From a virus, in IMG/VR virus record IMGVR_UViG_3300047493_000064, positions 1-47,050 of that record: 47,050 nucleotides of DNA. One strand, given 5' to 3'. This document shows positions 2,755 to 47,050 of the stretch, piece after piece. Every line of letters begins with the position of its first letter. Position 1 is the first letter of the stretch. The notes under the pieces are model-generated. The model had not been told where the DNA came from. It was given only the letters and a program-made list of their open reading frames with translations, and did not search any database. The position numbers and the translations under genes were made by a program.

Positions 2755-2844
2755 GTATGTGCAAAGACAGCCTGAGATTGTTCCAAAGAGATAGGTCTGT
2801 TATTACAAAGCATATAGGTAATATTTTTGAAGAAAGGGAATTAT

Positions 2845-3093
2845 ATGAAAATGCACAACCCTCCCCACCCTGGCGAAATCCTAAGAGAACTTTATCTTAA
2901 GCCTTTAGGACTTACCATAACAGAAGTCGCGAAAGGATTAGGAGTTACACGGAAAACATTAACAGTTCTTGTGAATGGACATGCAGGCGTTAGTCCAGAG
3001 ATGGCTATAAGACTTTCCATAGCTTTTGATACAACCCCAGAAAGTTGGCTTAATTCTCAGCAGCATTATACCTTTTGCTCTCTCCATAAATAA
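2845..3093 (+). CDS. higA-like: HigA-family XRE-type antitoxin/regulator without partner toxin
   Basis: An 82-residue helix-turn-helix protein of the HigA/VapI antitoxin family. The family signature [18 protein letters not shown] is at the N-terminus, followed by [21 protein letters not shown] (recognition helix region), then [23 protein letters not shown] 2845 fits best, with AAAGGGA 5 bp upstream; an upstream in-frame TTG at 2827 has no such site. The C-terminus is short and ends [10 protein letters not shown] where family members usually continue with a QxxYDL-type helix, so the tail may be frame-altered. No HigB-like ribonuclease gene is adjacent on either side. It probably acts as a stand-alone repressor or as antitoxin to a host toxin. 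Confidence 0.85.
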
Positions 3094-3146: not shown

Positions 3147-3476
3147 TTAGCTATCCAACTCCAGTTGACATTCCTGTTCTATTGATTCACTCACTCTTCT
3201 CATCAAAGAAGCGCTGATCTGGGTAAAGAAAGTAATATAAGTCATCACTCTTTCACAATCCTCAGTCTCGCTTTCAAAATATTTAAGAAGATCTTCCTTT
3301 TCTGAGGGGCTTACAAAGGAATTCTCAATTATTTCCCTAATCTCCTTTTTTATCTTAGGAATGGAATCAAAATGATCAGTAATGATCTTTTCAAATAAGA
3401 TGGAAAGAGCTCTAAACAACAACAACTTTACTCGTACCCCTTCCAAGGGTAGTTTTTTTGGTTCTACTTGATTCAT
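3147..3476 (-). CDS. Hypothetical 109-aa helical protein, opposite strand
   Basis: Not recognised. Read from the minus strand, ATG 3476 follows AGGACTGAT, a good ribosome site, which supports a real gene. The product is predicted helical and charged (MNQVEPKKLPLEGVRVKLLL, later KIKKEIREIIENSF and ESETEDCERVMTYITFF). It is the only minus-strand gene between 1 and 37 kb. It diverges from the Rep gene, with the putative origin between them, so it could be a copy-control or replication accessory gene; this rests on position only. Confidence 0.6.
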   Translation of the reverse strand: MNQVEPKKLPLEGVRVKLLLFRALSILFEKIITDHFDSIPKIKKEIREIIENSFVSPSEKEDLLKYFESETEDCERVMTYITFFTQISASLMRRVSESIEQECQLELDS

Positions 3477-3559
3477 ATCAGTCCTATTTGTTCATCATAA
3501 AAAAATTATCTAGCGAATCATACAATATGTAGCTTTGTGTCTGCTAGTCTGCTATAAAA

Positions 3560-3595
3560 AAAAATAGCTCTTCCCGCTAGAGAAGAACTATTTTT
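3560..3595. terminator. Strong hairpin with A-run and T-run, origin region
   Basis: AAAAATAGCTCTTC (3560-3573) pairs with GAAGAACTATTTTT (3582-3595) with one mismatch and an 8-base loop. An A-run precedes it and a T-run ends it, so it would act as an intrinsic terminator in both directions. Its location between divergent genes, just upstream of iteron-like repeats, also fits a structured origin element. Confidence 0.6.
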
Positions 3596-3667
3596 ACTCA
3601 ATTTAAACTTAGAAAATAATCAACAACAATTATCTTAGAAAGACCATTTAAAGGACCCTCATAAAAC

Positions 3668-3771
3668 TTACAAAGTATAACAAAGGAAATATACAAAGTA
3701 TAACAAAGGAGCTTTACAAAGGAGACTTACAAAGTATTACAAAGCAAAGTATTACAAAGGAGATTTACATA
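3668..3771 (+). repeat. Iteron-like direct repeats, candidate replication origin
   Basis: The motif TACAAAGTATAACAAAGGA and close variants repeat in one orientation: starts near 3669 and 3692 (23 bp apart), a short form at 3715 (TACAAAGGAG), then TACAAAGTATTACAAAG at 3728 and an overlapping copy reading AAAGTATTACAAAGGAG from 3746. The array lies 70 bp upstream of a winged-helix replication-initiator-like gene in a strongly AT-rich gap (3477-3841) containing no gene. This arrangement is typical of iteron-controlled origins; function is inferred. Confidence 0.55.
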
Positions 3772-3841
3772 TGCCCTAATTCTACATAGATGTCAACAAA
3801 AAAACATTTTTTTTCACAATTAAAAATATGAAAGACATTTT

Positions 3842-5062
3842 ATGGCACTTAATTCTTATATTAAATACCAGCTTTCGCTGGCCAAAATAATTGGAGATAA
3901 GGAAGCTCTCTTTATCGACAGCCTTAAATATTGGAGAGAACATCCTAACGTTGGCAAACTCTACCAAGGGAAAAAGTGGATTTATAACACAGCAGAAGAA
4001 TGGGCCAATCAACTTAATATCTGTAGCCGTCATGTTAGAAGAATAGTGGCTAAACTCGTTAAGCTAGGAATCCTTCTTGTTGAGAAGCTAAACTTCAACA
4101 AGTTCAAACGGACCAACTATTACACAATTGATGATAATAAGTTACAAGAAGTCCTTACTCCTCAAGAAGGAAAAAAATGTCCTAATGCATTAGGCTCGCA
4201 GAGCCTAATCTATAATACAGAGAATACTAATACATCTTATAAGATTATAAGAGGAAATAAAGATTTAAGTAAAATACAAGATACATTCATTAATGATAAT
4301 AAAGATTACTCTAATACTAACGATGTTAGTACAGATAGAGAAGATGTGAGTGGTAAATACTTGAGCAAGGTTGAAAAGAGGATAGATCATTTCATGGATG
4401 AAAAAGATAAGCTAGAAGCTTATAAGATGTTAGAAATCATAACAGATAAGCTGGATCCTCCCTTAAAGATCAATTCTGAGTTGACGATGAATATTCTCTC
4501 CAGGAGATTGCAGGCACATTTCGGCACAGGCCGAGAGGCTCTCACTGCCTTTAAGGATTATTGTACCTGTTATGCCCACAATGAGCTCTTGATGGGAAAG
4601 AAAGCTTTAAAGGATGGAACCTACTTTAAAACCAATATCGGCACTATCCTCTCAAACAAGTTCATCAACGATTACCTGGAAAAAAGAGGATTCTTCCGTT
4701 TTACTAACCTTCAGTACTCACCTGTTGAGAGAAGGGCTCCTGGCGCCGAAGATCAAGAGAGAAGAGAACAGAACTCCTGGTTTTACGACGACAAACCTGC
4801 ACGAGAAAAAGTCATGGCCCCCCGCGAATATGTCTCCCCCCCAGCTTCCCCTGAAATGGAAGCCATGTTTGAGAGATTAGGCAAGACATTAGGAATGGCC
4901 GTTAAACCCGCTGTAATGGCACCTACAGCCCCATCACCCTCTTACCCTAGGCCAACCTACCTTCCTAAGGCAGAAGGGCCGTCAGGGGGCTTAAAATCGC
5001 TGTTACGGGCACAAAAGGATTATCGACCACCAAACAGGAGGGAAGAAGGAGAAATATCCTAA
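3842..5062 (+). CDS. Putative replication initiator (winged-helix Rep-like)
   Basis: Likely binds the adjacent origin and starts replication. Residues ~15-100 form a winged-helix-type DNA-binding domain: KEALFIDSLKYWREH, then WIYNTAEEWANQLN, CSRHVRRIVAKLVKLGILLV and a wing KFKRTNYYTID. This pattern is common in plasmid and phage replication or regulatory proteins. Residues ~110-180 are a low-complexity N/T/D linker. A second helical domain follows (residues ~180-285, with NILSRRLQAHFG and YFKTNIGTILSNKFINDYLEKRGFF), then a proline-rich tail. The region upstream carries direct repeats and a hairpin. There is no strong ribosome site. Codon use becomes less AT-rich after ~4,680. It lies inside the interval separating the two terminase halves. 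Alternative: a transcription regulator. Confidence 0.6.
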   Translation: MALNSYIKYQLSLAKIIGDKEALFIDSLKYWREHPNVGKLYQGKKWIYNTAEEWANQLNICSRHVRRIVAKLVKLGILLVEKLNFNKFKRTNYYTIDDNKLQEVLTPQEGKKCPNALGSQSLIYNTENTNTSYKIIRGNKDLSKIQDTFINDNKDYSNTNDVSTDREDVSGKYLSKVEKRIDHFMDEKDKLEAYKMLEIITDKLDPPLKINSELTMNILSRRLQAHFGTGREALTAFKDYCTCYAHNELLMGKKALKDGTYFKTNIGTILSNKFINDYLEKRGFFRFTNLQYSPVERRAPGAEDQERREQNSWFYDDKPAREKVMAPREYVSPPASPEMEAMFERLGKTLGMAVKPAVMAPTAPSPSYPRPTYLPKAEGPSGGLKSLLRAQKDYRPPNRREEGEIS

Positions 5063-5180
5063 GAGCTTTTTTCTCTTCTAAGGAGAAGTTTAATTGAATT
5101 TTCTTTTAAACCCTCTCTTTATAGAGAGAGATAAATTAGCTATGATTCGAGGATTAACAAGTAAAAAAGGACAATTTGAA

Positions 5181-5807
5181 ATGAAACGATTGATAACAAG
5201 CTTAATAAGTGTAGCTTTATTAACAACAGCAGTGTATGCCAGTGACGCTGATTCACTTGCTGAGAAAAGAAATGAAAGCGGAACACTTTTAACAGATGTT
5301 GTTAGATATACTCTTCCTGCACCAGTGGTAGAGCAGTTAGATGAGCACTGGGGAAGAGTAAAGACTGCTTTGGTAGAGTTAGGAGAAACTCATTGGAAAG
5401 GAAATATAGAGGACCCTCTCCGGGCTTTGTACGTTAGCCGTGGTCTGGCTCATTCTAGTGCATTAGGGCAATCATTGGTCGCACGCCGAGAAGAGCATGA
5501 AGCTTCTATACGAGGGCAAGCTGATTCACTAATGATAAAGATCTTTTTAAGATATCCAGATATTATGGATCTTACGCCTGCTGATTCTATAGCGGGTCCT
5601 TATTGGGTATGGTCGGATCCTCATAGATTACAATTAGCTGAAGAGCAATGGACAACCAAAATTGCGCCCACTATCCAAAGAGCTTACAATTTGATAGGAC
5701 AAGGAACTGGTCCAGGTGTTCAAGCAGCTTTACAGACAGCACGAAAGAAATTTGATGATGAAGTAAAAATAGAAATGGGAATATTACGAAGGAGGAGCGC
5801 TTCTTAA
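5181..5807 (+). CDS. Secreted or periplasmic protein with signal peptide
   Basis: 208 residues from ATG 5181. This start is preferred because it has AAAGGACAATTTG upstream and gives a textbook signal peptide: basic MKR, a hydrophobic core LITSLISVALLTTAVYA, then SDAD after the likely cleavage site. An upstream in-frame TTG at 5094 would bury the signal. The mature part is helical and charged, with no cysteine and no recognisable catalytic motif. Export suggests a periplasmic job such as lysis support, superinfection exclusion or host modification. It overlaps the next gene by one base (TAATG). Confidence 0.75.
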   Translation: MKRLITSLISVALLTTAVYASDADSLAEKRNESGTLLTDVVRYTLPAPVVEQLDEHWGRVKTALVELGETHWKGNIEDPLRALYVSRGLAHSSALGQSLVARREEHEASIRGQADSLMIKIFLRYPDIMDLTPADSIAGPYWVWSDPHRLQLAEEQWTTKIAPTIQRAYNLIGQGTGPGVQAALQTARKKFDDEVKIEMGILRRRSAS

Positions 5808-6148
5808 TGAGATTAAATAAAGATTTCAAGAAAACCAAATATGGGCTTTTCAGGAAAGAGAAGGCTTCTTTACCTGAAGAAAAGGGGGGTGGCAATTTGC
5901 CCCCATCCTTAATGCCAACCTGTGACGATTTGTCACGGGTTGCTGTTGCTTCAGAAGATTCCCCTGTTCCTGTTATGCTTCCTATTTGGCCTGGGAAGGG
6001 GATACAGTTCCTTAAACAGCGTCGACCAAAACCATTTATGTATCTAACTGATGAAGACTTGGAAGAATATAAGAAAGAGCAAGAAGAGTGGGAAGAATGG
6101 CAGAAAGAGTGGAATAATACGATACGAGACAACAGCAGATTAAGATGA
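5807..6148 (+). CDS. Hypothetical 113-aa protein with acidic/aromatic coiled tail
   Basis: Not recognised. The start overlaps the stop of the exported-protein gene (TAATG), so the two are probably co-translated. The N-terminal part is basic with a glycine/proline linker (EEKGGGNLPPS). The last ~40 residues form a highly charged helix with repeated W and E (LEEYKKEQEEWEEWQKEW). No membrane segment. It ends immediately before the six-copy 22-bp tandem repeat. Confidence 0.6.
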   Translation: MRLNKDFKKTKYGLFRKEKASLPEEKGGGNLPPSLMPTCDDLSRVAVASEDSPVPVMLPIWPGKGIQFLKQRRPKPFMYLTDEDLEEYKKEQEEWEEWQKEWNNTIRDNSRLR

Positions 6149-6181
6149 AGAAATGTTTAAAGAACCTGCACGTCAACATCT

Positions 6182-6313
6182 TACCGCCTACTCAAATGCG
6201 CACTACCGCCTACTCAAATGCGCACTACCGCCTACTCAAATGCGCACTACCGCCTACTCAAATGCGCACTACCGCCTACTCAAATGCGCACTACCGCCTA
6301 CTCAAATGCGCAA
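6182..6313 (+). repeat. Six tandem copies of a 22-bp unit
   Basis: Six head-to-tail copies of a 22-bp unit beginning TACCGCCTACTC and ending ATGCGCAC, identical except for the last base of copy six. The GC-rich units stand out from the AT-rich surroundings. Because 22 is not a multiple of three, any reading frame cycles through all frames every 66 bp, so the short open frames here (6145-6399, 6153-6389) are probably not genes. Located ~330 bp upstream of the terminase C-half. Possible roles: protein-binding array, packaging or partition site. Confidence 0.9.
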
Positions 6314-6401
6314 ACAACATTGTGAAACATATGATTTACTGCGGTTCACAGGAGGTATTCGTTTTTATAAAAATATTAAAAACTATTAAGAGTTTTTAAT
6401 A

Positions 6402-6445
6402 GGGGGGGGGAACTAACGCAAAAGGGGGGGGGAACTAACGCAAAC
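6402..6445 (+). repeat. Two 22-bp units beginning with nine G residues
   Basis: Nine Gs followed by AACTAACGC and an A-run occur twice, again with a 22-bp period (6402 and 6424). Two G9 tracts on one strand in an AT-rich genome are conspicuous and could form intermolecular or slipped G-rich structure. G-run lengths may also be affected by sequencing error. Confidence 0.75.
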
Positions 6446-6506
6446 CAAATCCATGGAACCCTATATTTTCAGCCATATATAGAAACATTCGTTTTGGCGT
6501 AAAGAA

Positions 6507-6569
6507 TTTAAAGACTATATAAAGTCTTTAAAGGGGGGACGGCTCTTTTTAGTCGCCATCCCCTTTAAA
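6507..6569 (+). terminator. Two overlapping alternative hairpins
   Basis: Hairpin 1: TTTAAAGACT (6507-6516) with AGTCTTTAAA (6523-6532). Hairpin 2: TTTAAAGGGG (6527-6536) with CCCCTTTAAA (6560-6569). They share 6527-6532 and so are mutually exclusive, a layout seen in attenuators and antiterminators. The gap 6149-6644 otherwise holds the two 22-bp repeat arrays and one more hairpin, with no gene I can support. Confidence 0.5.
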
Positions 6570-6578
6570 AAACAAAAG

Positions 6579-6618
6579 GTAATAACTCGCTCTTCCTAAT
6601 TCACTATTGAGTTATTAC
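6579..6618 (+). terminator. 10-bp stem hairpin just upstream of the terminase C-half gene
   Basis: GTAATAACTC (6579-6588) and GAGTTATTAC (6609-6618) are perfect reverse complements with a 20-base loop, followed by TTTT. It could terminate transcripts coming through the 22-bp repeat zone or act in the leader of the gene starting at 6645. The stem is AT-rich and only moderately stable. Confidence 0.4.
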
Positions 6619-6644
6619 TTTTCTGTGAAGATTGAGTTAAGCTT

Positions 6645-6788
6645 GTGAAAACCAAGTTTAAATTCAATCAATACATGAAAAGTAAAGTTGTCAAATCCAT
6701 TAAACGAATCAAGAAAAAATGTGACGTTTATAATCTAGAAGTCAAAGACAATAACAATTACTTTGCAGAGGATATCCTCGTCCATAAT
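6645..6788 (+). other. Intein C-half coding segment
   Basis: Encodes up to 48 residues removed by protein splicing. It contains the block F aspartate (D27 in KKCDVYN), the penultimate histidine H47 and terminal asparagine N48; the next codon, TGT at 6789, is the C-extein nucleophile. All residues expected of a class 1 intein C-half are present. The first ~24 residues are very basic (KSKVVKSIKRIKKK), as in many natural split C-halves that pair electrostatically with their N-half. Confidence 0.92.
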
Positions 6789-7889
6789 TGTGACGATGCG
6801 AACAACGTTGTTGATGTAGAATCAGAAGTCATTCGTGTTGGGGTGAATGAATGGTGGGACTTTGTTATGTCCACTCGCGTTAGCAACTTCAAGACGGCTC
6901 GATGGATTGTCGCCCAACAAAGAACCCACACATTAGACCTGTCTGGCCATGTGCTTGCCAAGAACAATGATGACTGGATTCATTTGTGTTTACCGATGGA
7001 ATTTGAGAGTAATCGGCGGTGTCAAACAGTCCTTCTCAACAAAGAAACTTGGCAAGACCCGCGTCAACATGAAGGAGAGCTGTTATGGCCTCAAGGGATT
7101 GGGCCAAAAGAGCTTCAGAACATCAAATCAGACTTCAATTATGACTCCTATCGTATCTCTGGTCAGTTACAGCAGAGCCCTTCCCCTGAAGGAGGAGGCA
7201 TCATTCAAAAGAGTTGGTTCAAGTGGTGGAAGCAACCTGATTACCCTGAGTTTAAATATATCCTCCAGAGTTGGGATACAGCCTTAACCAGTAACGTTAA
7301 TAGCTGTTACAGTGCTTGTACAACATGGGGAGTGTTTGAAGAGAATGGTATCAAGAATATTATGCTCTTAAGCCTCTTTAGTGAAAAGTTAGAATATCCT
7401 GAACTTCGGAAAATGGCTGTCAGACTCTATAATAATTATGAGGATACGTTAATTGATGAACCTATCTACGGTATCAATAGAGCTCATCATATTCTTATTG
7501 AACAGAAAGTTAGCGGCTATTCTCTCTTGCAAGATTTAATGGCAACTAATATTCCTGTTTTGAAATTTAATCCTAATAAATATGGAGATGATACGGGACG
7601 AAAAGGAAAAGGAAAGATGGGACGTTGCCGTATTGTCACTCATTTGATGGAAAATGGCTTGGTATGGTTGCCAACAATAACCCCTGCCTGTCAGTTCTTG
7701 ACCGAAGATTCACAGCTGTTTCTGAAAGCAGCCACTCTTTTCCCCAATGATGAAAGCAACGATATCATCGATAGCATGAGTCAAGCCTTTATTCGCCTCA
7801 TTAGCTCTGGGTGGATTGCTAACAAAGAAGACCCTCGTGACTTTCCTGAAGAAGATAATTGGAAAAAACAAAAAAGGCGCTATTATTAA
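6645..7889 (+). CDS. terL (C-half): Split intein C-half + large terminase C-terminal part (rest of ATPase, nuclease)
   Basis: Residues 1-48 are an intein C-half: block F is CDVYNLEVKDNNNYFAEDIL and block G ends VHN, followed by Cys49 as the +1 residue. Residues 49-414 are terminase: CDD completes the Walker B motif begun in the gene at 45713; YRISGQLQQSP follows; the RNase H-like nuclease shows LQSWDTAL (D211), IEQKVSGYSLLQDL (E286) and NDIIDSM (D373/D376). GTG 6645 gives a 48-residue half; ATG 6675 would give 38, closer to usual sizes, and neither has a good ribosome site. Neither gene alone encodes a working terminase. Trans-splicing with the product of 45713-46558 would give ~549 residues, a normal TerL length. 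A frame stop at 6633 shows the gene is not continuous with anything upstream. Confidence 0.93.
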   Translation: MKTKFKFNQYMKSKVVKSIKRIKKKCDVYNLEVKDNNNYFAEDILVHNCDDANNVVDVESEVIRVGVNEWWDFVMSTRVSNFKTARWIVAQQRTHTLDLSGHVLAKNNDDWIHLCLPMEFESNRRCQTVLLNKETWQDPRQHEGELLWPQGIGPKELQNIKSDFNYDSYRISGQLQQSPSPEGGGIIQKSWFKWWKQPDYPEFKYILQSWDTALTSNVNSCYSACTTWGVFEENGIKNIMLLSLFSEKLEYPELRKMAVRLYNNYEDTLIDEPIYGINRAHHILIEQKVSGYSLLQDLMATNIPVLKFNPNKYGDDTGRKGKGKMGRCRIVTHLMENGLVWLPTITPACQFLTEDSQLFLKAATLFPNDESNDIIDSMSQAFIRLISSGWIANKEDPRDFPEEDNWKKQKRRYY

Positions 7890-10513: not shown

Positions 10514-11377
10514 ATGTCAAAAAATTCTCCTGCTCATGTTTTAATGAGTCATGGTGGTAAAGAACATCACAAGAATACACATGATAAATTTTCAACAGCT
10601 AAGCCCCGTTGTTATGCCACAGGTGGCTATGCTGAAGGTGGTGATACCTATGATGAAGGTGGGGAAACCATGAGGCGAGGAGGTCGTCGTCATCGTGATA
10701 TGGGAGGACCTTTAGGTCCTGGATTTTTAGGTCCTGTAATGAACAATGCTAGCTGGGGACGTGCAGCTCCTCCTATGGGAGCTAATCCAGCAACTACAAA
10801 TCCTACGAGTTGGAGCCCTAATGATATGAGAGATGCAATGGCACGATATCAGCAGCAATATCCTGGTTACTCTAAAGGATATCATCAGGGTTACTCTAAA
10901 GGTGGTCATGCTGAAGGTGGGGAAACCATGAGGCGAGGAGGTCGTCGTCACCACGCTGATGGGGGGATGAACAGGAATCCTCATACTGGTCATCCCCAAT
11001 ATGGTATATTAGATGTTCTAGATAATATTCCTATTCTTGGTGATATTAAGCGAGCTCTCTTTGCTGAAGGTGGGGAAACCATGAGGCGAGGAGGTCGTCG
11101 TCACCACGCTGATGGAGGAGACACCATGAGGCGAGGAGGTCGTCGTCACCACGCTGATGGAGGAGACACCATGAGGCGAGGAGGTCGTCGTCACCACGCT
11201 GATGGAGGAGACACGATTCCCGTTGAAGGAAAGGCTCGTGCTAATGCAATAGGGGGGCCTCAATTTGCTCGTTCTGCATTGGGAGGAAATCGAGCTTTTG
11301 CAGAAGGAGGGGACATGATGCGTCGTGGTGGTCATCGTAGTCGTCGTCACCACGCTGATGGGGGTTATGATGACTAA
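10514..11377 (+). CDS. RGG/His-repeat virion-type protein with NPHTG module
   Basis: 287 residues; start supported by AAAAGGATAATAACT. A repeated module AEGGETMRRGGRRHHADGG occurs singly near residues 132-150 and as three tandem copies around 183-230, with partial copies at both ends. It is rich in Gly, Arg and His; RGG-type segments generally bind nucleic acid, so DNA or RNA contact inside the capsid is plausible. Between repeats is NPHTGHPQYGILD followed by a hydrophobic stretch (VLDNIPILGDIKRALFAEGG), also seen in the proteins at 18465 and 29136. Position directly after the portal suggests a virion or assembly role. No known family recognised. Confidence 0.7.
   Translation: MSKNSPAHVLMSHGGKEHHKNTHDKFSTAKPRCYATGGYAEGGDTYDEGGETMRRGGRRHRDMGGPLGPGFLGPVMNNASWGRAAPPMGANPATTNPTSWSPNDMRDAMARYQQQYPGYSKGYHQGYSKGGHAEGGETMRRGGRRHHADGGMNRNPHTGHPQYGILDVLDNIPILGDIKRALFAEGGETMRRGGRRHHADGGDTMRRGGRRHHADGGDTMRRGGRRHHADGGDTIPVEGKARANAIGGPQFARSALGGNRAFAEGGDMMRRGGHRSRRHHADGGYDD
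11063..11215 (+). repeat. Tandem 45-bp coding repeat
   Basis: A 45-bp (15-residue) unit starts at 11063, 11108 and 11153, with a partial fourth from 11198. The second and third units are identical at DNA level and the first differs only at a few bases near its start. A single matching unit sits at 10910. The near-identity implies recent expansion or ongoing homogenisation, so copy number is likely to vary between isolates. Confidence 0.9.
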
Positions 11378-20771: not shown

Positions 20772-23765
20772 ATGGCTCTAGAGAATGCACCTTTTTTATT
20801 AGTAGGAACTGATGTAACAGATGCTCCAAATTCACGAAATTTAACGAGTGATCCTTTTTCCTCAAATTTAATATTTGTTGATAGTGGACCTGGAGGGAAT
20901 TATACGCTTTCTCCTGTTTTAAACTTACAATCATTAACTCAGATTGGCTCAACAGGATTAACAACTTATCTAGGGAATAATAGCTTTACTAGCCGTTCCA
21001 TTACTTCGCCTGGGTCTATTTCTGTAACGAATCCTGATGGAAACGGAGGAAATATTGGCCTTTCGGTCGTTGATTTTACTTCAACACAAAATGTTCAAAT
21101 TCAGGTTAGTGATTTTGCTCCATTAATTGGAAATACTCTCCAATTTATTCCTGGAACAAATATGGACATTAATGCAACGGAGAACAGTGGTATTCTTAGT
21201 GTTGTCTTTAATTCTGCTGCTGGAAGTGGAGGGGAAGGAACAGTAACAAGCATTGGGGTAGGAGCGGGATTAAGCAGCAACACAACTAATCCGATCACAA
21301 CTAATGGCATTATTTCTCTTTCTCCTCTTGGTGCTCCATTGGTTCCTGGGACTTATATAAGTCCTCTGTTGAATGTCAATGAGTATGGTCAAATTACTGA
21401 GATCGTTAATGGGACAATTGGCAATGGAACAGTAACGGAAATAGCAACGGGGATTGGCTTAGAGGGCGGTCCGATCTTTACCTCAGGGACAATTTCTATT
21501 GCTAATATTGACGGATTGGCTGCTGGTACCTATTCAAATCCCATTTTAACGGTCAATCAACAAGGCCAAATCACAGAAATTTTCCCAGGACCTGGAGGTG
21601 ATGGAACGGTAACGGAAATAGCAACAGGTGTTGGCTTAGAGGGTGGTCCAATCTATACGTCAGGGACAATTTCTATTGCTAATATTGCTGGGCTAAATCC
21701 TGGTATTTATACCAATCCTATTATTGAAATAAATGCTCAGGGACAAATTATTGATGCGATCCAAGGAACAGGAGGAGAAGGAACAGTAACGGAAATAGCA
21801 ACAGGGATTGGGTTAACGGGTGGTCCGATCTATGAATCAGGAACGATTTCTATTGCTAATATTGCGGGATTAACGCCTGGACCTTATACCAATCCTAACT
21901 TAACGGTCAATCAACAAGGCCAAATTACTGAGATTAGTAACGGAAGTAGTTCTACGTTGCCTGGTCCTGGTGTCATTGTAACCGATCCATTAGGTACGCC
22001 AGCTGCTGTTTCTTATTTGATGGATAATTCAACTGAAGATACGGGTGGTTTATTCTTAGGCCTTAATACAGGATCGATAGGAAATAAAGTCCTTGGAATA
22101 GGGTATGGTGTTCTAGCTGAAAACACTGCTGATTTTAATACAGCCATTGGATGGTTGTCTTTAGCCACGAATTCATCGGGTAGTTATAATACAGCCGTAG
22201 GCCCTAACTGCTTAAATGCTAATCAGACAGGCAGTTACAATACAGCTCTTGGTGTCTTTTCTTTGCAAAGTAATACAACTGGTAGTAACAATCTTGGAAT
22301 AGGACTTGATTCTTTATTCACAAATACAACTGGCAACAATAACGTTGGTATTGGTGTAGAGTCTTTGTATTTAAATATAACAGGAAGTGATAATGTAGCT
22401 ATCGGCTACCAAGCGCTTAGGTCAAATGTTTCTGGGCAGAATGTAGCCATAGGAAGTGGGGCTCTCCTAAATACTGTCTCTGGTGGTAATACAGGTTTAG
22501 GCTATCAAGCTTTATTTTACAATACATCAGGAACGTCCAATGTTGCTGTTGGTAATGCCGCTCTTCAAAACTATCTAGGATCTAGAAATACAGCGGTAGG
22601 GTGGTCTGCTTTACAAAGTACACTTGGTACATCCTCGTCATCGGATAATACGGCTGTTGGTCAGCAAGCTTTAAGAGAGAATATATATGGACAGTTCTGT
22701 ACTGCCGTTGGGTCAAATGCTCTTTTAAATTCTACAGCGGCTTCCTACTTGACTGCTATAGGCTTTAATGCAGGCGCAACTTATCAAACAACAGATAACT
22801 GTACATTTATAGGAAGTGGCACTGATGCGACAGTTGCCGGGTTGTCGAATATAGTTGCCATTGGTGCTAACGCGCTGGTCTCAGCTTCAAACAATATGGT
22901 TCTGGGTGGAACAGGCGCCAATGCTGTATCAGTCGTTGTTGGGGCAACTGAAGCTGATCCTTCTGCAGTTTTAGATTTAGAATCGTCGACTCAAGGCTTC
23001 TTAATGCCTCGGATGACATCGGCAGATAGACTCGCCATTCCTTCACCAGTAAATGGCCTTCAGGTTTATGACACCACAAGTGCTCTTCCTTACTATTATA
23101 ATAGTACTATCCCCGCATGGCTTCCAGTAGGAACTGGTGGGTCAGGAGGGATTATTGAGGTAAACGTTATAAAATATGATACTCCTGGCCTCTATACTTA
23201 TACGCCAACTCCAGGAATGGTATTCTGCCTAGTTCAGATGTGTGGAGGAGGAGGAAGTGGACGTCTTTCTACTTCGGGTACTCCAGGTGCAAGTGGTGGT
23301 GGTGGTGGATATACTCAAAAATTCTTCCTTGCTGGCGATATAGGGCTTTCTCAGAGTGTGACAGTAGGGGCAGGGGGGGCAGCAATTACTGGCACTTCAG
23401 CAAACAACGGAAACCCTGGAGGAACTTCTTATCTTGGAACTATACTTGCGGGAACAGGAGGATCGGGAGGAACACAAACAGCAATAGCAATTGGTGGAGT
23501 TGGTTTTGGTGGAGATTTTATATTGAACGGACAAAACGGAGGACTAGGGGTGAATACAGGGGCGGGTGCTTTAATAAGTCCAGGAGGGAGTTCGTTCTTT
23601 GGACCTTCTATGCAGCCACTTATAGGTTCAGCTGCAACCGGGAATGGAATAAATGGCCGTAATTACGGAGAGGGGGGAAGTGCAAATTATGCATCTGGTG
23701 CAGGGCCTTTTTCATCTGGAGCTGGTGCTTCTGGCGTTGTCATTATTACTGAATATTTAGCTTAA
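20772..23765 (+). CDS. Receptor-binding/tail-fibre type protein with YadA-head-like repeats and Gly-rich tip
   Basis: 997 residues after AAGGAACAGACA. Domains: N-terminal beta region; four ~59-63-residue repeats containing GTVTEIATGIGL and VNQQGQITEI (residues ~155-390); a long trimeric-autotransporter (YadA head)-like block (residues ~435-720) of motifs such as GSYNTAVG, NNVGIGVESL and DNVAIGYQAL; a linker with VLDLESSTQGFLMPRMTS; and a C-terminal glycine-rich domain with GGGGGYTQKF. YadA-like repeats form trimeric beta rolls in adhesins; glycine-rich tips bind receptors in several phage fibres. It probably recognises the host surface. The second fibre at 24415 has the same linker and YadA-like elements. 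Confidence 0.8.
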   Translation: MALENAPFLLVGTDVTDAPNSRNLTSDPFSSNLIFVDSGPGGNYTLSPVLNLQSLTQIGSTGLTTYLGNNSFTSRSITSPGSISVTNPDGNGGNIGLSVVDFTSTQNVQIQVSDFAPLIGNTLQFIPGTNMDINATENSGILSVVFNSAAGSGGEGTVTSIGVGAGLSSNTTNPITTNGIISLSPLGAPLVPGTYISPLLNVNEYGQITEIVNGTIGNGTVTEIATGIGLEGGPIFTSGTISIANIDGLAAGTYSNPILTVNQQGQITEIFPGPGGDGTVTEIATGVGLEGGPIYTSGTISIANIAGLNPGIYTNPIIEINAQGQIIDAIQGTGGEGTVTEIATGIGLTGGPIYESGTISIANIAGLTPGPYTNPNLTVNQQGQITEISNGSSSTLPGPGVIVTDPLGTPAAVSYLMDNSTEDTGGLFLGLNTGSIGNKVLGIGYGVLAENTADFNTAIGWLSLATNSSGSYNTAVGPNCLNANQTGSYNTALGVFSLQSNTTGSNNLGIGLDSLFTNTTGNNNVGIGVESLYLNITGSDNVAIGYQALRSNVSGQNVAIGSGALLNTVSGGNTGLGYQALFYNTSGTSNVAVGNAALQNYLGSRNTAVGWSALQSTLGTSSSSDNTAVGQQALRENIYGQFCTAVGSNALLNSTAASYLTAIGFNAGATYQTTDNCTFIGSGTDATVAGLSNIVAIGANALVSASNNMVLGGTGANAVSVVVGATEADPSAVLDLESSTQGFLMPRMTSADRLAIPSPVNGLQVYDTTSALPYYYNSTIPAWLPVGTGGSGGIIEVNVIKYDTPGLYTYTPTPGMVFCLVQMCGGGGSGRLSTSGTPGASGGGGGYTQKFFLAGDIGLSQSVTVGAGGAAITGTSANNGNPGGTSYLGTILAGTGGSGGTQTAIAIGGVGFGGDFILNGQNGGLGVNTGAGALISPGGSSFFGPSMQPLIGSAATGNGINGRNYGEGGSANYASGAGPFSSGAGASGVVIITEYLA
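21237..21945 (+). repeat. Four coding repeats of ~59-63 codons in the fibre gene
   Basis: Units begin near 21237, 21426, 21603 and 21780 (189, 177 and 177 bp apart), each starting GGAACAGTAAC or a close variant and encoding GTVT(S/E)I, then TISIANI and G(Q)ITEI. Units 2-4 are very similar at DNA level, indicating duplication. Their number probably sets fibre length. Confidence 0.85.
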
Positions 23766-23770
23766 AATAA

Positions 23771-24415
23771 ATGGCATTCGTTCTTACCTATACGAATCTT
23801 GTTACGAATCTGCAGAACTATCTGCAAAGAACGGATGCCACTTTTGTAAGTGAGATTCCTGTTTTTATTATGCTGGGCCAACGTCGTGTTGCCCGTGATC
23901 TTAAAATTTTAGGAATGAGAGTCGTTATTAATGGCACATTAATTCCTTCAAATCCCAAATTACAGAAGCCGACTCGATGGTTTAATACATCAACTTTTAA
24001 TATAGGAACAGGAACGAACTCTGCTATTAAAAATAATTTACCGCTTAGAACTTACGAATATTGTAACATTTATTCTCCTAATCCGACTATTGTCTCTCAA
24101 CCTAAGTATTTTGCTGATTTTGATTTTGATTATTGGTATTTAGCACCAACACCTGATCAAGCTTATCCATATGAAATTGCTTATTTTCAGGTTCCTCAAC
24201 TTATTGATGAAACGGTTTCAACGAATTTTATGACTCAAAGTTGTCCTGATGTTTTGTTATTTGCTTGTCTTTTGGAAAGTGCTTCTTATTTAAAGGATGA
24301 TGATAGAATTAGAACTTGGCTAACTTCTTATAATTTGGCAAAAGATGCGTTGAATAAGGAAGACATACAAAGATTATACGATAATTACAGTGTCAATAGA
24401 GGAGCAACTAATTAA
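23771..24415 (+). CDS. SU10-type adaptor / head-tail connector protein
   Basis: 214 residues. The C-terminal half strongly resembles the phage adaptor family (SU10 adaptor-like): YWYLAPTPDQAYPYEIAYF, then QVPQLIDETVSTNFMTQSCP, DVLLFACLLESASYLKDDDR and a last helix with YNLAKDALNKEDIQ. The N-terminal helix carries FVSEIPVFIMLGQRRVARDL. Adaptors sit under the portal ring and join it to the nozzle. No clear ribosome site (start TAAAATAAATG). Overlaps the next gene by one base. Confidence 0.75.
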   Translation: MAFVLTYTNLVTNLQNYLQRTDATFVSEIPVFIMLGQRRVARDLKILGMRVVINGTLIPSNPKLQKPTRWFNTSTFNIGTGTNSAIKNNLPLRTYEYCNIYSPNPTIVSQPKYFADFDFDYWYLAPTPDQAYPYEIAYFQVPQLIDETVSTNFMTQSCPDVLLFACLLESASYLKDDDRIRTWLTSYNLAKDALNKEDIQRLYDNYSVNRGATN

Positions 24416-27210
24416 TGCCTGTTTATGCTAATCAATTTGGTGCTGTTCAGACTGCTTATATTGCTTATGCAACTTATGATTTAAAGACTGCTTTATTGCA
24501 ATTAAATTGGCCGACTTCTTATCAAGATTCACCTAATGTTGTGGCAGCTTATATGGAGTTTACCAATGTAAATAATACACCAACTCCTAATGTTCAATTA
24601 CCTGATGCAACACAAGTCAGTGTAGGACAAAACTTCATTGCTAGTAATCTTGGGAGTAAGACGATCTTTCTGTTGGATGGGGCTGGTAACGAATTTGATA
24701 GTATTCCTCCTCTTTCCGAGACTGTTAGCAATATTAAATATTATATCTTAGTAGACAATAGTACGATTGCAGGGGTTTGGCATATTGTAACATTTGGAGC
24801 GGGAACTTCAGAAGCGACTGCCGCACAATTGGCTGGTTATGGATTGAATTCTTTAATTATTGGCACATCGGATGGAACAAAGCTTAATACTCAGATTAAT
24901 CCAACAATATTAGATAATAGTCTTATATCTTATAATATTCAACCGACTGATTACACAAGTTTATTGGTTTGGACGGCTGCCACGGGTAATATTTATTTAC
25001 CTGCAACGAATTCTTCTCCTATTCCTCCTGCTGTTCCGCCTGCTTATTATGTAGCTATTAACAATGCAGGAACGGGCATTATAACTGTTTCTTCTAGCGA
25101 ATCTGGAATAGGCATTCAAGGAGAATTAAGTATTGATGTCGCTCCTCAACAAACTTTAATTCTTATAAGTTGTGGGACTGCCCAAACAATCAACGGAAGA
25201 CCGACTAAATGGTTTACCTTAGGATTTGGTCAGGAATCTACAGTAGGAATTACTTATCTTAATATCCCTGTCGCAGGTAATAGCAGTATCTATTTAACCA
25301 CGAGTCAAGTTAGTAACGAAATATTAGAATTCTCAGGAACTTTAACTGGAAATATTTTTGTTTATTTCCCTAATGTTCAAGGTCAATGGTCTCTTTATAA
25401 TAATACGATGGGTGATTTTACATTGACCATTCAATTAGTTAATACAACTCCGACCCCTATTGGAACGCCTTATGGAATACCCCAAGGTAATCGTGCGATT
25501 TTTTATAGCAATGCTTTATCTTTATTTAATATTCCTGAACCTAGCGGCACAGGAAACGTCACTTTTATTCCCCCTACTCCTACATTAGCAGGTATTATCG
25601 CCACTTATGCTGATACAACTGGTCTTAATATAAACGCTTCATCAGTTAATATAGGAACACTTACTCCAACTTTATCATTAAGTCCCGTTACAGCAATTGA
25701 GAATTTGAATGCTATTTCATTCGCCGAAAGTGGAAATGGTCTTCTAATGCTTGGAAGTCAAGTAGGGATGGAGATCATTGAACAAAATAGTGAAGTTTGC
25801 GCTATCTTTAATGGAGGTCTTCCTAGTGGAGGATTGAGGACTATTAATACATTGGTTGAAATAAGATCACCTCTTTCGACACCGATGGCTCTTCAGTTAT
25901 CGCAATTAACTACTCCCTTACCAACACCTCTTAGTGGAGGAGCAGGCCTTATTGCTTTTAATTTATCGGCGAATGAATTCCAAGGATATAACGGCACTGA
26001 ATGGGTGACATTAGGAGGAAGTAGTGTGTTGCCTGCTTCTGGTATCATTGTAACGGATGGCTCTGGGAGTCCATCAGCTGTTTCCAATCTAGTTGATACC
26101 AGTACAGATGTGTACGCTACTGGAGGAAACTTACTGCTTGGCTTAGAAATTACTTCAGGGGGTAATAGTAATACAGGTTTTGGCTTTCAGGCCTTAGCTG
26201 TGAATGTGGGGCAATACAATTCTGCTTTTGGTTACCAAGCCCTTGCGAATAATCAAAACGGCACAGAAAATACGGCTTTGGGTTTGTTTGCTTTAGCAGA
26301 AAATCAGACAGGAAGCCAAAATACCGCGTGTGGTCAAGGGGCTTTAAGTCGAATAACAAGCGGAAACCATAATACTGCCATCGGACAAAGTGCAGGGGAT
26401 CAATATACAGAATATGATTATTGTGTATTTGTGGGAGCCCAAGCTAATGCCAATAATGGAAATTTACAATATTCAATTGCTATGGGATATCAATCAGCTG
26501 TTGGGTCAAGTCAAGCAATTGTTATTGGCGGTCAATCGATTGTGGGAGAGAATGGGGGAGGATCGGAAGATACAAACTCGATCATTGTTGGATATAACTC
26601 TCAAATTGGCACAGATGATGGCGGCCCTGGTACGTCAAACTCAATTATTCTTGGAGCGAATTCATATATTGGCCACGCAACAGATGAAATTGATAATTCA
26701 ATAGGTATCGGCTGTAATATTAATATTGAAGTAGCCAATAAGCTCGTTCTGGGAAATAATTGTGCGGTTGGTATAGGAACTTTTGCTTCTGATTCCGCTC
26801 TTCAGATAGTCGCTCAGACCAATGCTGATGCATGGCTTCATATAGGAGCACCGAATGCTGCTCCTGCGTCAACTTCCTCAAATGATACTATCATTTATAA
26901 TAATGTAGCTTCTAGTACAGGATTCTTGGCAGTGATGGGTTCTCAAGGGTATTCAAGTGGGAATCTGGTTACGGCTAAGACAAATGTGACGGCTGGAACG
27001 GCAACTTTAACAGCAGGGGCTATGACGGTAATGACAACGGCGGTTCAAGCTAATTCTATTATTCTGGTAAATTATAACATGATTTCAGGGGTAGGAGGCA
27101 GTCTAAGTGCGCCTGCTGCTGGTCGGAGCGTAGGGGTTAGCTTCACTATTAATTCCACCATAGGAACAGATACAAGTACGGTAGATTGGGTAATTATTAA
27201 TCCACTGTAG
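24415..27210 (+). CDS. Second large receptor-binding/tail-fibre type protein
   Basis: 931 residues, start overlapping the adaptor stop (TAATG). The N-terminal ~550 residues consist of several beta domains; one (around STVGITYLNIPVAGNSSIYL and NEILEFSGTLTGNIFVYFP) resembles the C-terminal domain of the protein at 20201. Residues ~545-560 (LPASGIIVTDGSGSPSAVS) repeat a linker of the 20772 fibre. Residues ~580-670 are YadA-head-like motifs (NTGFGFQALA, NSAFGYQALA, NTAIGQSAG). The C-terminal ~70 residues (TATLTAGAMTVMTTAVQANS to the end) form a beta tip domain seen in other phage and adhesin proteins. Likely a second adhesin with different specificity. Confidence 0.78.
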   Translation: MPVYANQFGAVQTAYIAYATYDLKTALLQLNWPTSYQDSPNVVAAYMEFTNVNNTPTPNVQLPDATQVSVGQNFIASNLGSKTIFLLDGAGNEFDSIPPLSETVSNIKYYILVDNSTIAGVWHIVTFGAGTSEATAAQLAGYGLNSLIIGTSDGTKLNTQINPTILDNSLISYNIQPTDYTSLLVWTAATGNIYLPATNSSPIPPAVPPAYYVAINNAGTGIITVSSSESGIGIQGELSIDVAPQQTLILISCGTAQTINGRPTKWFTLGFGQESTVGITYLNIPVAGNSSIYLTTSQVSNEILEFSGTLTGNIFVYFPNVQGQWSLYNNTMGDFTLTIQLVNTTPTPIGTPYGIPQGNRAIFYSNALSLFNIPEPSGTGNVTFIPPTPTLAGIIATYADTTGLNINASSVNIGTLTPTLSLSPVTAIENLNAISFAESGNGLLMLGSQVGMEIIEQNSEVCAIFNGGLPSGGLRTINTLVEIRSPLSTPMALQLSQLTTPLPTPLSGGAGLIAFNLSANEFQGYNGTEWVTLGGSSVLPASGIIVTDGSGSPSAVSNLVDTSTDVYATGGNLLLGLEITSGGNSNTGFGFQALAVNVGQYNSAFGYQALANNQNGTENTALGLFALAENQTGSQNTACGQGALSRITSGNHNTAIGQSAGDQYTEYDYCVFVGAQANANNGNLQYSIAMGYQSAVGSSQAIVIGGQSIVGENGGGSEDTNSIIVGYNSQIGTDDGGPGTSNSIILGANSYIGHATDEIDNSIGIGCNINIEVANKLVLGNNCAVGIGTFASDSALQIVAQTNADAWLHIGAPNAAPASTSSNDTIIYNNVASSTGFLAVMGSQGYSSGNLVTAKTNVTAGTATLTAGAMTVMTTAVQANSIILVNYNMISGVGGSLSAPAAGRSVGVSFTINSTIGTDTSTVDWVIINPL

Positions 27211-27221
27211 GAAAATAAATC

Positions 27222-28859: not shown

Positions 28860-29107
28860 TGGAAAATGGAATAATAATACCTTTGAGAATTAGTTTTAAT
28901 AGATGGACGGATCATCTTAATCAAATATTACCGAATCTATCCATACCGATATCATGGGGAGAAGAAAATTGGAGAGAATGGGCTAATCAATTGATTAGTA
29001 CTAATTCACTTTCAACAGTTCCTGTAGCAACTGAATTGAATTTTCCTAAAAAGGAAGATTGGCGAAAATGGGCCACTTATTTTATTACAATTATAAATTT
29101 ACCTTAA
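28859..29107 (+). CDS. Small tail-region protein with repeated W..WA motif
   Basis: 82 residues, coupled to the nozzle gene by TAATG. It contains two similar aromatic motifs, ENWREWANQLI (residues ~37-47) and EDWRKWATYFI (~66-76), suggesting an internal duplication of a ~30-residue unit. No charge cluster or membrane anchor. Gene position suggests a neck or tail accessory protein; function unknown. Confidence 0.65.
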   Translation: MENGIIIPLRISFNRWTDHLNQILPNLSIPISWGEENWREWANQLISTNSLSTVPVATELNFPKKEDWRKWATYFITIINLP

Positions 29108-29135
29108 ATAAGGAATGAAAAAACAAGGAGAAATT

Positions 29136-30101: not shown

Positions 30102-30138
30102 GGTCACAACCTTAATAATTTAGGAGAAAGGGTATTCT

Positions 30139-31863: not shown

Positions 31864-31866
31864 AAA

Positions 31867-34866: not shown

Positions 34867-34870
34867 GATC

Positions 34871-37090: not shown

Positions 37091-37114
37091 ATCGGTGACA
37101 GTTTGTCACCGATT
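37090..37114. terminator. Hairpin between converging genes
   Basis: AATCGGTGACA (37090-37100) pairs perfectly with TGTCACCGATT (37104-37114) around a GTT loop. It lies exactly between the stop of the + strand late operon (37090) and the stop of the minus-strand gene (37113) and can end transcription in both directions, although the U-runs are poor. Confidence 0.7.
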
Positions 37115-37868: not shown

Positions 37869-37970
37869 TGTTAAGGCTATTTAGGTAAGAGCTATCTATA
37901 TTCAATAATAATCGTTTTTATGAAATAAAACCAGGAAAACAATGAGGAAAAACAAGCTGAGAAGTAGAAA

Positions 37971-38002: not shown

Positions 38003-38071
38003 ATTAACGGTATGCAAAGTCAATATAACAGACGTACTAATTTTCATCAAGGTCCTAAAGGAGAAAATTTG

Positions 38072-38657: not shown

Positions 38658-38686
38658 TTATTCTCTTTCTTCTAACATAACTGGGG

Positions 38687-45712: not shown

Positions 45713-46558
45713 ATGAACTTCTCTAACGCTCGAAAAATCGATCAAGCTTTGAAGGTTATCGACAGGCGGTCTGATATTGACTTATTAACTGACCAGCAGT
45801 TAGCTATTAAAGAAAAATGTGAAGGTTCATTTTATGAATTTGTACGTCATGCTTGGAAAACGTTGGAGAACCGTGAATTTATCCCTGGGTGGCATGTCAG
45901 AGCGATGTGTGATCATTTAGAAGCGGCTTATGATGGAGATATTAAGAAGCTTTTGATTAACTTACCGCCTCGTACAGGTAAATCGAATGTTATGAGTGTC
46001 TTTTTCCCTGCTTGGTGTTGGGTTAAAGATGCAGGCTTGCGCTTTCTCTATACATCCTATGCCCAAACTCTTTCTGTCAGAGATAGTGTAGGGTGTCGTC
46101 GTCTTATCTTATCAGAATGGTATCAATCGTTATGGGGCAATAAATTTCGTCTCATGAGTGATGTAAATAACAAGTTACGTTTTGATAACAATTGCTCTGG
46201 CTATCGGATTGCCAGTTCAGTGGGGGGAACCAATACGGGGTTAGGAGGGGACTTTGTGGTTTGTTTCCCTTATTCAACGAAAGTTATGACAGCCCAAGGT
46301 TCTATCCCCATTGGAATGATTGTTGAAGACGCTATGGATATAGAAGTAGCTTCTTACAATCATAAGAAGCAGAAGATAGAATTTAAACCAATTTTAAAGC
46401 GTATGAATAGTCAGGCACATGAACTTATTGAGATTGAGTTTGAGGATGGGGAAAAGCTCCAATGTACCCCTGACCATCCTATTTTTGTGAAAGGAAAAGG
46501 CTATGTAAAAGCGGCAGAATTAGAAAAAGATAATAAATGTTTTTCAATGGTGAATTAA
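45713..46558 (+). CDS. terL (N-half): Large terminase N-terminal part (ATPase) + split intein N-half
   Basis: 281 residues. Residues 1-183 are the start of a terminase ATPase: adenine/arm region FYEFVRHAWKT and FIPGWHVRAMCDHLEAAY, Walker A LPPRTGKS (84-91), LRFLYTSYAQTLSVRDS, then TNTGLGGDFVV, where Walker B begins. At residue 184 the sequence turns into an intein N-half: block A starts CFPYSTKVMTAQG, block B contains QCTPDHPIFVKGKG with the TxxH motif (T252, H255). It ends after 98 intein residues at ...KDNKCFSMVN, the usual length of a natural N-half. The matching C-half begins the gene at 6645. The ribosome site is weak and translation may depend on the cold-shock gene 3 bp upstream. Confidence 0.93.
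   Translation: MNFSNARKIDQALKVIDRRSDIDLLTDQQLAIKEKCEGSFYEFVRHAWKTLENREFIPGWHVRAMCDHLEAAYDGDIKKLLINLPPRTGKSNVMSVFFPAWCWVKDAGLRFLYTSYAQTLSVRDSVGCRRLILSEWYQSLWGNKFRLMSDVNNKLRFDNNCSGYRIASSVGGTNTGLGGDFVVCFPYSTKVMTAQGSIPIGMIVEDAMDIEVASYNHKKQKIEFKPILKRMNSQAHELIEIEFEDGEKLQCTPDHPIFVKGKGYVKAAELEKDNKCFSMVN
46262..46555 (+). other. Intein N-half coding segment
   Basis: 98 codons from Cys1 (TGT 46262) to the stop. Splicing residues present: Cys1, block B Thr and His. Breakpoint after block B corresponds to where the homing endonuclease sits in full inteins and where natural split inteins are cut. The last ~10 codons (KDNKCFSMVN) are duplicated as the tail of the next gene. Confidence 0.92.
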
Positions 46559-46830
46559 AAGGAGAGTAAGGAATGATTATAAATGAGCTACGAATAACAA
46601 AATTAAATATTAATAATATATTAATACTATTATCAGTTGTACCTTCTTCTATGCGGGGTATGCGTCAATACATTGAGGATAAAAACGCTCTTGACGCTGT
46701 AGAAATACTAAGTAATGAAATGGAAATGAAAATAGGGAATTGTATGACCACATTAATTGAAATAAGTGCACTAATCGAATTTACGCTGGCTCATGCTACT
46801 AATCTTCCCAATAAGCTAAAAGAAGAAAAA
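46529..46830 (+). repeat. 302-bp tandem duplication beginning inside the intein N-half
   Basis: 46529-46830 and the sequence starting at 46831 (continuing across the circle junction to about 212) are tandem copies with a 302-bp period. The unit covers the last intein codons, the ribosome site and the following small gene. The junction joins GAAAAAGATAAT of the intein end with GAAAAGGATAAT of the small gene's end, a microhomology. Copies differ by a few bases (for example 'ctatgcgggg' against 'ctattcgggg'). Confidence 0.9.
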
Positions 46831-46860
46831 GATAATAAATGTTTTTCAATGGTGAATTAA
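46573..46860 (+). CDS. Small helical protein, first tandem copy, with borrowed intein tail
   Basis: 95 residues after AAAAGGAGAGTAAGG. Nearly identical to the second copy (46875 through the junction to 221) for ~86 residues, then ends KEEKDNKCFSMVN instead of KEEKDNPL. The KDNKCFSMVN tail is the C-terminus of the intein N-half, acquired in frame through the 302-bp duplication. N-terminus rich in I/L/N (LNINNILILLSVV), rest helical with two Cys/Met-rich spots. Located 14 bp after the terminase N-half; function unknown. Confidence 0.7.
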   Translation: MIINELRITKLNINNILILLSVVPSSMRGMRQYIEDKNALDAVEILSNEMEMKIGNCMTTLIEISALIEFTLAHATNLPNKLKEEKDNKCFSMVN

Positions 46861-46874
46861 AAGGAGAGTAAGGA

Positions 46875-47050
46875 ATGATTATAAATGAGCTACGAATAAC
46901 AAAATTAAATATTAATAATATATTAATACTATTATCAGTTGTACATTCTTCTATTCGGGGTATGCGTCAATACATTGAGGATAAAAACGCTCTTTACGCT
47001 GTAGAAATACTAAATAATGAAATGGAAATGAAAATAGGGAATTGTATGAC
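46875..47050 (+). CDS. Start of the second tandem copy (continues at 1-221)
   Basis: Partial only because the window ends. ATG 46875 has the same AAGGAGAGTAAGG site as copy one. Bases 46927-47050 repeat 1-124, so the complete 90-residue gene is read as 46875-46926 then 1-221. Confidence 0.75.
   Translation, partial: MIINELRITKLNINNILILLSVVHSSIRGMRQYIEDKNALYAVEILNNEMEMKIGNCM
46927..47050. repeat. Terminal direct repeat, copy at window end
   Basis: Identical to 1-124 with no mismatch seen; the gene crossing it stays in frame when the ends are joined, supporting a circular or permuted molecule. Confidence 0.9.

What the first reader, a model, noticed from the sequence alone, without database searches (positions are those of the whole stretch)
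6182..6313. Six exact 22-bp tandem repeats upstream of the terminase C-half
Near-identical GC-rich units stand out in an AT-rich genome. The period is about two helical turns, so each copy shows the same DNA face. It is not codon-compatible, so selection is on DNA or RNA. Candidates: packaging (pac) recognition, partition centromere, or regulator array.
Basis: partly seen in the sequence, partly recalled or inferred. Interest (0 to 1): 0.58.

Follow-up and report, generated by a model that had tools for sequence, protein, structure and literature searches.

The report
Iteron-like array inside split terminase gene
Six back-to-back copies of a 22-base DNA word in a bacterial virus look most like docking sites for the protein that starts its DNA replication, and they lie in a replication block wedged between two halves of the DNA-packaging gene, which a split intein probably rejoins as protein.

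Summary
The array is real: 6182-6313, five exact 22-bp units plus one differing at its last base, and no other copy in the 47-kb circular phage. It is 55% GC in a ~37% GC genome. Its context changes the reading. The terminase is not broken: it is split by a complete-looking split intein (N half 45713-46558, C half 6645-7889). In 16 of 16 other split-intein terminase loci the gap is 0.2-0.9 kb; here it is about 7.0 kb and holds an O/DnaD-like replication initiator gene (3842-5062), with the array 1.1 kb downstream. The order replication gene, GC-rich repeats, shared TTACTGCGGYTCACAGG box, easily melted DNA recurs in relative G023, and three other relatives pair GC-rich repeats with very unstable DNA. 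The best reading is an iteron-type protein-binding array, most likely the initiator-binding part of the phage origin (confidence 0.45). Against it: the unit is in no independent relative, a rival repeat cluster lies directly upstream of rep, perfect DnaA boxes are absent, and strand skew gives no support once a relative serves as control. A late-operon regulatory array and a neutral minisatellite remain open. Pac and partition get no support. New variant of a known kind.

The parts
6182..6313 (+). array of six 22-bp direct repeats TACCGCCTACTCAAATGCGCAC (last copy ends in A)
   Evidence: among the 0.4% most stable 50-mers of the genome
6336..6352 (+). box TTACTGCGGTTCACAGG, shared at 16/17 with the repeat region of relative G023
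6353..6402 (.). A+T-rich stretch (candidate unwinding element) with a 14-bp-arm palindrome 6374-6401
   Evidence: least stable 0.39% of 50-mers; palindrome
6398..6441 (+). second 22-bp tandem, two copies, each with a G9 tract (the only G/C runs of 8 or more in the window)
6507..6622 (.). three inverted repeats (6507-6532, 6527-6569, 6575-6622), hairpin/terminator-like
   Evidence: single-strand fold z -3.15 for 6149-6644
3842..5062 (+). O/DnaD-like replication initiator (rep); predicted N-terminal winged helix
   Evidence: PHROG 6493 E 1.1e-21; fold model and matches
3657..3769 (+). rival repeat cluster ACAAAGTATWACAAAGG just upstream of rep
5094..5807 (+). gene of unknown function downstream of rep
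5807..6148 (+). gene of unknown function ending 33 bp before the array
6645..7889 (+). intein C-part (38 aa if ATG 6675 is the start) + terminase large subunit C-half
   Evidence: Intein_splicing and Terminase_6C, TerL PHROG 38; start judged from alignment with relatives
45713..46558 (+). terminase large subunit N-half (183 aa) + intein N-part (98 aa)
46824..47050 (.). second copy of a 302-bp tandem duplication at the circle junction (124-bp identical ends, 1-124 = 46927-47050)

Best explanation
The array is an iteron array: six phased binding sites for a DNA-binding protein, most likely the phage's own O/DnaD-like initiator encoded 1.1 kb upstream. Inferred mechanism: initiator molecules fill the GC-rich, 22-bp-spaced (about two helical turns) sites on one face of the helix. 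The strain opens the adjacent A+T-rich stretch (6353-6402), and the helicase loads there. The module sits in a ~7.0-kb block between the two halves of a split-intein terminase gene. This is tolerated because the halves are, by inference, joined as proteins (trans-splicing). Shown: the array, the low-stability stretch, the nearby initiator-type gene, the split intein with its sequence motifs, the large gap, and similar layouts in relatives. Inferred: binding, melting, origin activity, splicing.
For: Exact phased 22-bp repeats. An O/DnaD-like initiator gene in the same block; its modelled N-terminal winged helix (pLDDT about 65-83 over most of residues 11-100) ranks entries titled 'Rep-DNA complex' and 'initiator' (Z 9.1-9.6) and DnaD's N-domain (Z 8.9) near the top, tied with other winged helices. 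The array is in the most stable 0.4% and the stretch 40 bp to its right in the least stable 0.4% of the genome. Relative G023 (47 kb, circular): primase-helicase gene, GC-rich 9/11-bp repeats, a box matching 16/17 in the same orientation, then the least stable DNA of its genome. At most one mismatch to the box is expected 0.022 times in the 3.6 Mb searched. GC-rich repeats by very unstable DNA also in L008, L224, L232. [quoted passage not shown]
Against: The unit occurs in no other virus in the collection except a 100%-identical 36.9-kb twin contig that ends inside the array, and in none of the genome contigs scanned. A second repeat cluster (3657-3769) sits closer to rep. The O-like rep genes of two relatives carry perfect DnaA boxes inside or beside them (G021 2 of 2, G028c32 4 of 4 in the record), whereas the window has none anywhere. 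In random windows of the same size 13% reach the array's unstable stretch. The box match is modest by alignment score: 1 of 200 shuffles but 5 of 299 random relative pieces reach it. Third-position T/A skew changes near 6.5-10.5 and 30 kb, but the same module shows it in G021 where rep is elsewhere, so it supports nothing.
Confidence: 0.45

Rival explanations
1. A regulatory array for the late operon: a phage or host transcription factor binds the phased repeats and controls transcription of the ~30-kb structural operon that starts with the terminase C-half, or insulates it from the rep operon.
For: It lies directly upstream of intein-C/TerL-C, portal and the structural genes, all on +; the region is rich in palindromes and hairpins. 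The phage encodes a lone RNAP alpha C-terminal domain that might act at such sites (speculative).
Against: Hairpins and 300 bp separate the array from the gene; the one promoter-like site in this intergenic region (6345-6374) is weak and such sites are not above shuffles in the wider stretch scanned. No GC-rich noncoding array was found directly upstream of the terminase genes of the relatives examined.
Confidence: 0.2
2. A neutral or weakly selected minisatellite: slippage amplified one 22-mer between two genes in a repeat-prone genome.
For: Units are identical, as in a recent expansion; the genome has other duplications (302-bp tandem at 46522-47050, 38.2-39.2 kb, 42.9/44.1 kb, 45-bp coding repeats). 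The unit is not conserved in relatives.
Against: The strongest noncoding array of the genome by TRF score, next to an unstable stretch and a second 22-bp tandem, in the rep block; relatives show analogous repeat clusters of unrelated sequence.
Confidence: 0.15
3. The origin is elsewhere (3657-3769 upstream of rep, or inside rep) and the array is an accessory control locus for the initiator (titration/handcuffing).
For: Repeat cluster ACAAAGTATWACAAAGG ends 72 bp before rep; the mid-rep stretch is in the least stable 0.23%; relatives' rep genes carry DnaA boxes internally.
Against: The upstream cluster is irregular and contains GGAG-type ribosome-site-like words; no perfect DnaA box in the window.
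Confidence: 0.12
4. A packaging (pac/cos) recognition site.
For: Lies next to a terminase half.
Against: The TerS-like gene is ~8.2 kb away; relatives examined lack such an array by TerL; what lies beside the array is an intein part. That such sites lie in or near terS is recalled from P22/SPP1.
Confidence: 0.04
5. A partition centromere for a plasmid-like prophage.
For: Repeat geometry alone; a HigA/VapI-like antitoxin in the same block.
Against: No partition ATPase or adaptor in the 42 of 59 ORFs scanned.
Confidence: 0.03

Closest known systems
Iteron origins of theta plasmids (R6K, pPS10: 22-bp iterons; recalled) and ori-lambda
   Same: Directly repeated, helically phased units beside an A+T-rich stretch with an initiator gene close by (phasing and lambda paradigm: PMC5043065, passages)
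   Different: Initiator is O/DnaD-like rather than Rep_3; no DnaA boxes; binding and function untested; iterons not inside the initiator gene as in lambda
Origins of phage-inducible chromosomal islands (PMC6092414, passages)
   Same: Position 3' of the replication genes; repeats next to AT-rich DNA. Relatives G023 and L008 resemble this closely
   Different: PICIs have two iteron sets flanking the AT-rich region; the window has the 22-bp array on one side only; no Pri-Rep here; two genes lie between rep and the array
PLE satellite origin with RepA_N iterons (PMC7145576, passages)
   Same: Noncoding repeat region bound by an initiator encoded by the element
   Different: No demonstrated relation; the window's Rep is O/DnaD-like by profile
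Fractured genes with split inteins (Dassa et al. 2009, seen only as a cited reference) and TerL split inteins such as AceL-TerL (PMC11766414, passages)
   Same: TerL split into two genes by a split intein; relatives carry a free-standing endonuclease ORF in the gap
   Different: Here the gap is ~7.0 kb with a replication module and no recognisable endonuclease; the split is canonical (98 + 38/48 aa), not the short-N type of AceL-TerL (25 + 104)

Membership tests
Iteron-type replication origin | several near-identical direct repeats of about 17-22 bp | tested here: met
   size range recalled
Iteron-type replication origin | spacing in phase with the DNA helix | tested here: met
   constant 22-bp spacing; phasing rule from PMC5043065
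Iteron-type replication origin | adjacent easily melted A+T-rich region | tested here: inconclusive
   present (0.39% least stable) but 13% of random windows do as well
Iteron-type replication origin | initiator gene nearby | tested here: met
   rep 3842-5062, winged-helix model; that it is cognate to the array is not shown
Iteron-type replication origin | initiator binds the repeats and the segment replicates autonomously | not testable with these tools
   needs EMSA and mini-replicon
PICI-type origin | two iteron sets flanking an AT-rich region, immediately 3' of the initiator gene | tested here: not met
   22-bp array on one side only, two genes between rep and array
pac/cos site | in or next to the small terminase gene | tested here: not met
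   TerS-like ORF 44327-44896 (weak DUF5681) is ~8.2 kb away; feature recalled
Partition centromere | linked partition NTPase and adaptor genes | tested here: inconclusive
   none in 42 of 59 ORFs scanned; the other 17, in 10.5-35 kb, not scanned
Split intein in a fractured gene | N-part with Cys1 and TxxH, C-part ending His-Asn before Cys+1, in separate ORFs | tested here: met
   CFPYST..., TPDH, VHN|C; motif roles recalled
Split intein in a fractured gene | exteins abut without loss in an intein-free homologue | tested here: met
   N-extein aligns to residue 185 and C-extein from 186 of G021 TerL
Split intein in a fractured gene | free-standing endonuclease gene in the gap | tested here: not met
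   endonucleases of L003/L032/L075 find nothing in the window (best E 1.2); none by Pfam in the gap ORFs scanned
Split intein in a fractured gene | trans-splicing activity | not testable with these tools
   needs expression of both halves

The most novel reading that the evidence does not exclude
A split intein has turned the terminase gene into a tolerated landing site, and the phage's replication module with its origin now lies between the two terminase halves. Initiator bound to the 22-bp array, or fork passage through it, could then time expression of the terminase C-half, so that a complete packaging motor appears only after replication has started: a replication-to-packaging switch that works through protein trans-splicing.
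Probability: 0.1. Interest if true: 0.75.

Novelty: new variant of a known kind. Interest (0 to 1): 0.45.

Why it matters
If the array is the origin, this phage group becomes a natural series in which related virions use origins of unrelated repeat sequence (22-bp array, 11-bp repeats, rep-internal DnaA boxes), useful for asking how origins and initiators are swapped as modules. The position between split-intein terminase halves suggests that a fractured essential gene can hold a whole multi-gene block, not just an endonuclease, which would make split inteins possible agents of genome rearrangement. Both points can be tested with small constructs.

Tried and rejected
Strand skew as origin evidence: third-position T/A skew switches near 6.5-10.5 and 30 kb, roughly opposite points, which looked like origin and terminus. 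The same module shows the same kind of arc (22.5-41 kb) in G021, whose rep is at 7.6-8.7 kb, so it is a module effect; G/C skew did not agree either. Rejected.

Rfam: nothing above noise in 3400-7000. BLAST of the region against plasmids gave two short matches at E 7e-3 that cover only the stretch after the array, and phages gave none; the first 25 kb of the window has no near match among phages. ARAGORN's tRNA-His inside rep (4754-4851, minus) was not followed up; taken as false because it lies in the rep frame.

Direct scans for relatives of Rep and of 5094-5807 in viral contigs found none; a search with Rep in nine relative records found none, though PHROG 6493 matches 3 of 20 records, the window included. 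No independent relative of the exact unit: the twin contig G001 is 100.000% identical over 36,894 bp.

Box over-reading: L206 has the exact 17-mer inside a coding gene of an unrelated phage, so the sequence alone is not diagnostic; L206 and L207 were fetched with the box and do not count as tests. L207 carries the same replication gene as G023 and is not independent of it. The shorter core GANCCGCAGT was chosen after seeing the sequences and is not used in the argument.

Selection to disclose: of the 29 rows of noncoding repeats I looked at sequence for L008, one G023-type phage (L030/L190/L207), L224 and L232, plus L072; others, such as L196, L241, L263 and L279, were not followed. In one search I passed 54 of the 80 loci; the 26 left out were weaker or duplicates. 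Of the 54, 16 (about 12 distinct lineages) are TerL loci with the intein C-part in its own ORF and the N-part located (in L218 the N-part is cut by the contig start); L226 was set aside because no N-part was found on its short upstream flank. Loci other than L107 were left out of the repeat surveys. The fold of Rep is poor beyond residue 106, so only its N-domain was interpreted; a family not listed is not excluded.

Full report
What is there. The window is a virus record of 47,050 bases whose ends are identical for 124 bp; it is therefore most likely circular, about 46,926 bp. The terminal copy differs from a neighbouring 302-bp tandem copy at 4 of 124 positions while the two contig ends agree at all 124, which favours true closure over a repeat artefact. 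The array at 6182-6313 is as described: five exact 22-bp units and a sixth with one change. It starts 33 bp after the stop of ORF 5807-6148 in a 496-bp gap between that ORF and the next. To its right follow a 17-bp box (6336-6352), an A+T-rich palindrome, a second 22-bp tandem with two G9 tracts (6398-6441) and three hairpins; folded as one strand the region is more stable than all 100 shuffles (z -3.15).

The terminase is split by an intein. The C-half ORF begins with an intein C-terminal part ending VHN before CDD; the N-half with an intein N-part beginning CFPYST and holding TPDH lies at 45713-46558. Against the uninterrupted TerL of relative G021 the N-extein aligns up to residue 185 and the C-extein from 186, so the halves abut without a gap. 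Alignment of four C-parts suggests ATG 6675, not GTG 6645, as the start. Scans found 16 TerL loci in which the C-part also has its own ORF and the N-part is located, from 54 loci passed out of 80 kept; their gaps measure 202-937 bp. Three that I examined hold an endonuclease ORF of 272-279 aa (HNH by Pfam in L003; homologous to each other at 36-49%). In the window the gap is about 7.0 kb around the circle junction, with no match to those endonucleases. It carries small genes, a HigA/VapI-like antitoxin, the initiator gene rep, two unknown genes and the array.

Relatives. G021 (49.8 kb) and G023 (47.05 kb), both with identical ends, G022 (30 kb) and a 42.5-kb contig in a Mucilaginibacter MAG share the structural genes with the window. 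Their replication regions differ. G021 and the MAG contig have O-like rep genes, and all their perfect TTATCCACA boxes, 2 of 2 and 4 of 4, lie in or within about 350 bp of those genes (consensus recalled). G023 has a primase-helicase gene followed by 9- and 11-bp GC-rich repeats, the box, and the least stable 50-mer of its genome. L008, L224 and L232 have GC-rich repeats of other sequence beside the least or nearly least stable DNA of their loci; random windows of equal length reach that in 10%, 4% and 3.6% of trials, 1.25% for G023, 13% for the window and 65% for the G021 rep. So the group pattern is lineage-specific GC-rich repeats plus easily melted DNA; the window fits it, but on its own only moderately.

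Link between window and G023. The 17-mer TTACTGCGGYTCACAGG matches 16 of 17, in the same orientation, after a replication gene and before the A+T-rich stretch. With at most one mismatch it is expected 0.022 times in the 3.6 Mb searched. By local alignment score the match is less striking: 1 of 200 shuffles and 5 of 299 random pieces of relatives reach it. I count it as suggestive.

The initiator. Rep matches PHROG families named DnaD-like helicase loader, replication initiation protein and O-like. A model from three sequences is usable only for residues 8-106, a winged helix. Foldseek and VIA-align place initiator N-domains (entries titled Rep-DNA complex, initiator; Z 9.1-9.6) and the DnaD N-domain (Z 8.9) among the best, tied with CRP, TFIIE and other winged helices: compatible with DNA binding, not proof of a family.

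Judgement. An iteron array serving the phage origin explains the repeat geometry, the neighbourhood and the parallel layouts in relatives. It is weakened by the lack of any independent relative with the unit, by the rival repeats at 3657-3769, by the missing DnaA boxes and by the failed skew test. A late-operon regulator array and a neutral minisatellite remain open; pac and partition are poorly supported. I put the origin reading at 0.45. The nesting of a replication block between split-intein terminase halves is the more unusual part.

Noticed in passing
window 43308-43718 (+): A lone RNA polymerase alpha C-terminal domain (136 aa; Pfam 7.4e-25; best solved-structure matches are bacterial RNAP alpha chains, E 1.6e-29). 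No match at E 1e-4 in the other loci fetched. Could be a protein that acts on host RNA polymerase.
   Followed up: partly
window 46522-47050 continuing into 1-211: 302-bp tandem duplication that includes the last codons of the intein N-part gene, so its 3' end is repeated downstream.
   Followed up: partly
window 3657-3769: Irregular direct repeats ACAAAGTATWACAAAGG directly upstream of rep; candidate operator or rival origin.
   Followed up: partly
window 6402-6410 and 6424-6432: The only G/C runs of 8 or more in the window, both in the two-copy 22-bp tandem; candidates for slippage.
   Followed up: no
window 6500-30000; G021 22500-41000: Third-position T excess confined to the structural gene module, shared with a relative whose replication gene is elsewhere.
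   Followed up: partly
window 10514-11377: Gly/Arg/His-rich protein with 45-bp coding repeats (RGGRRHHADGG), next to portal.
   Followed up: no
window 2842-3093: HigA/VapI-like HTH antitoxin in the 7-kb block without an obvious toxin partner beside it.
   Followed up: no
L193 8146-8331 (G021 rep gene): 92-nt repeat at 94-nt spacing inside the rep gene, so the two copies are read in different frames, which hints at selection on DNA.
   Followed up: partly
L010 4203-5612: An intein-bearing terminase-like ORF at another insertion site.
   Followed up: no
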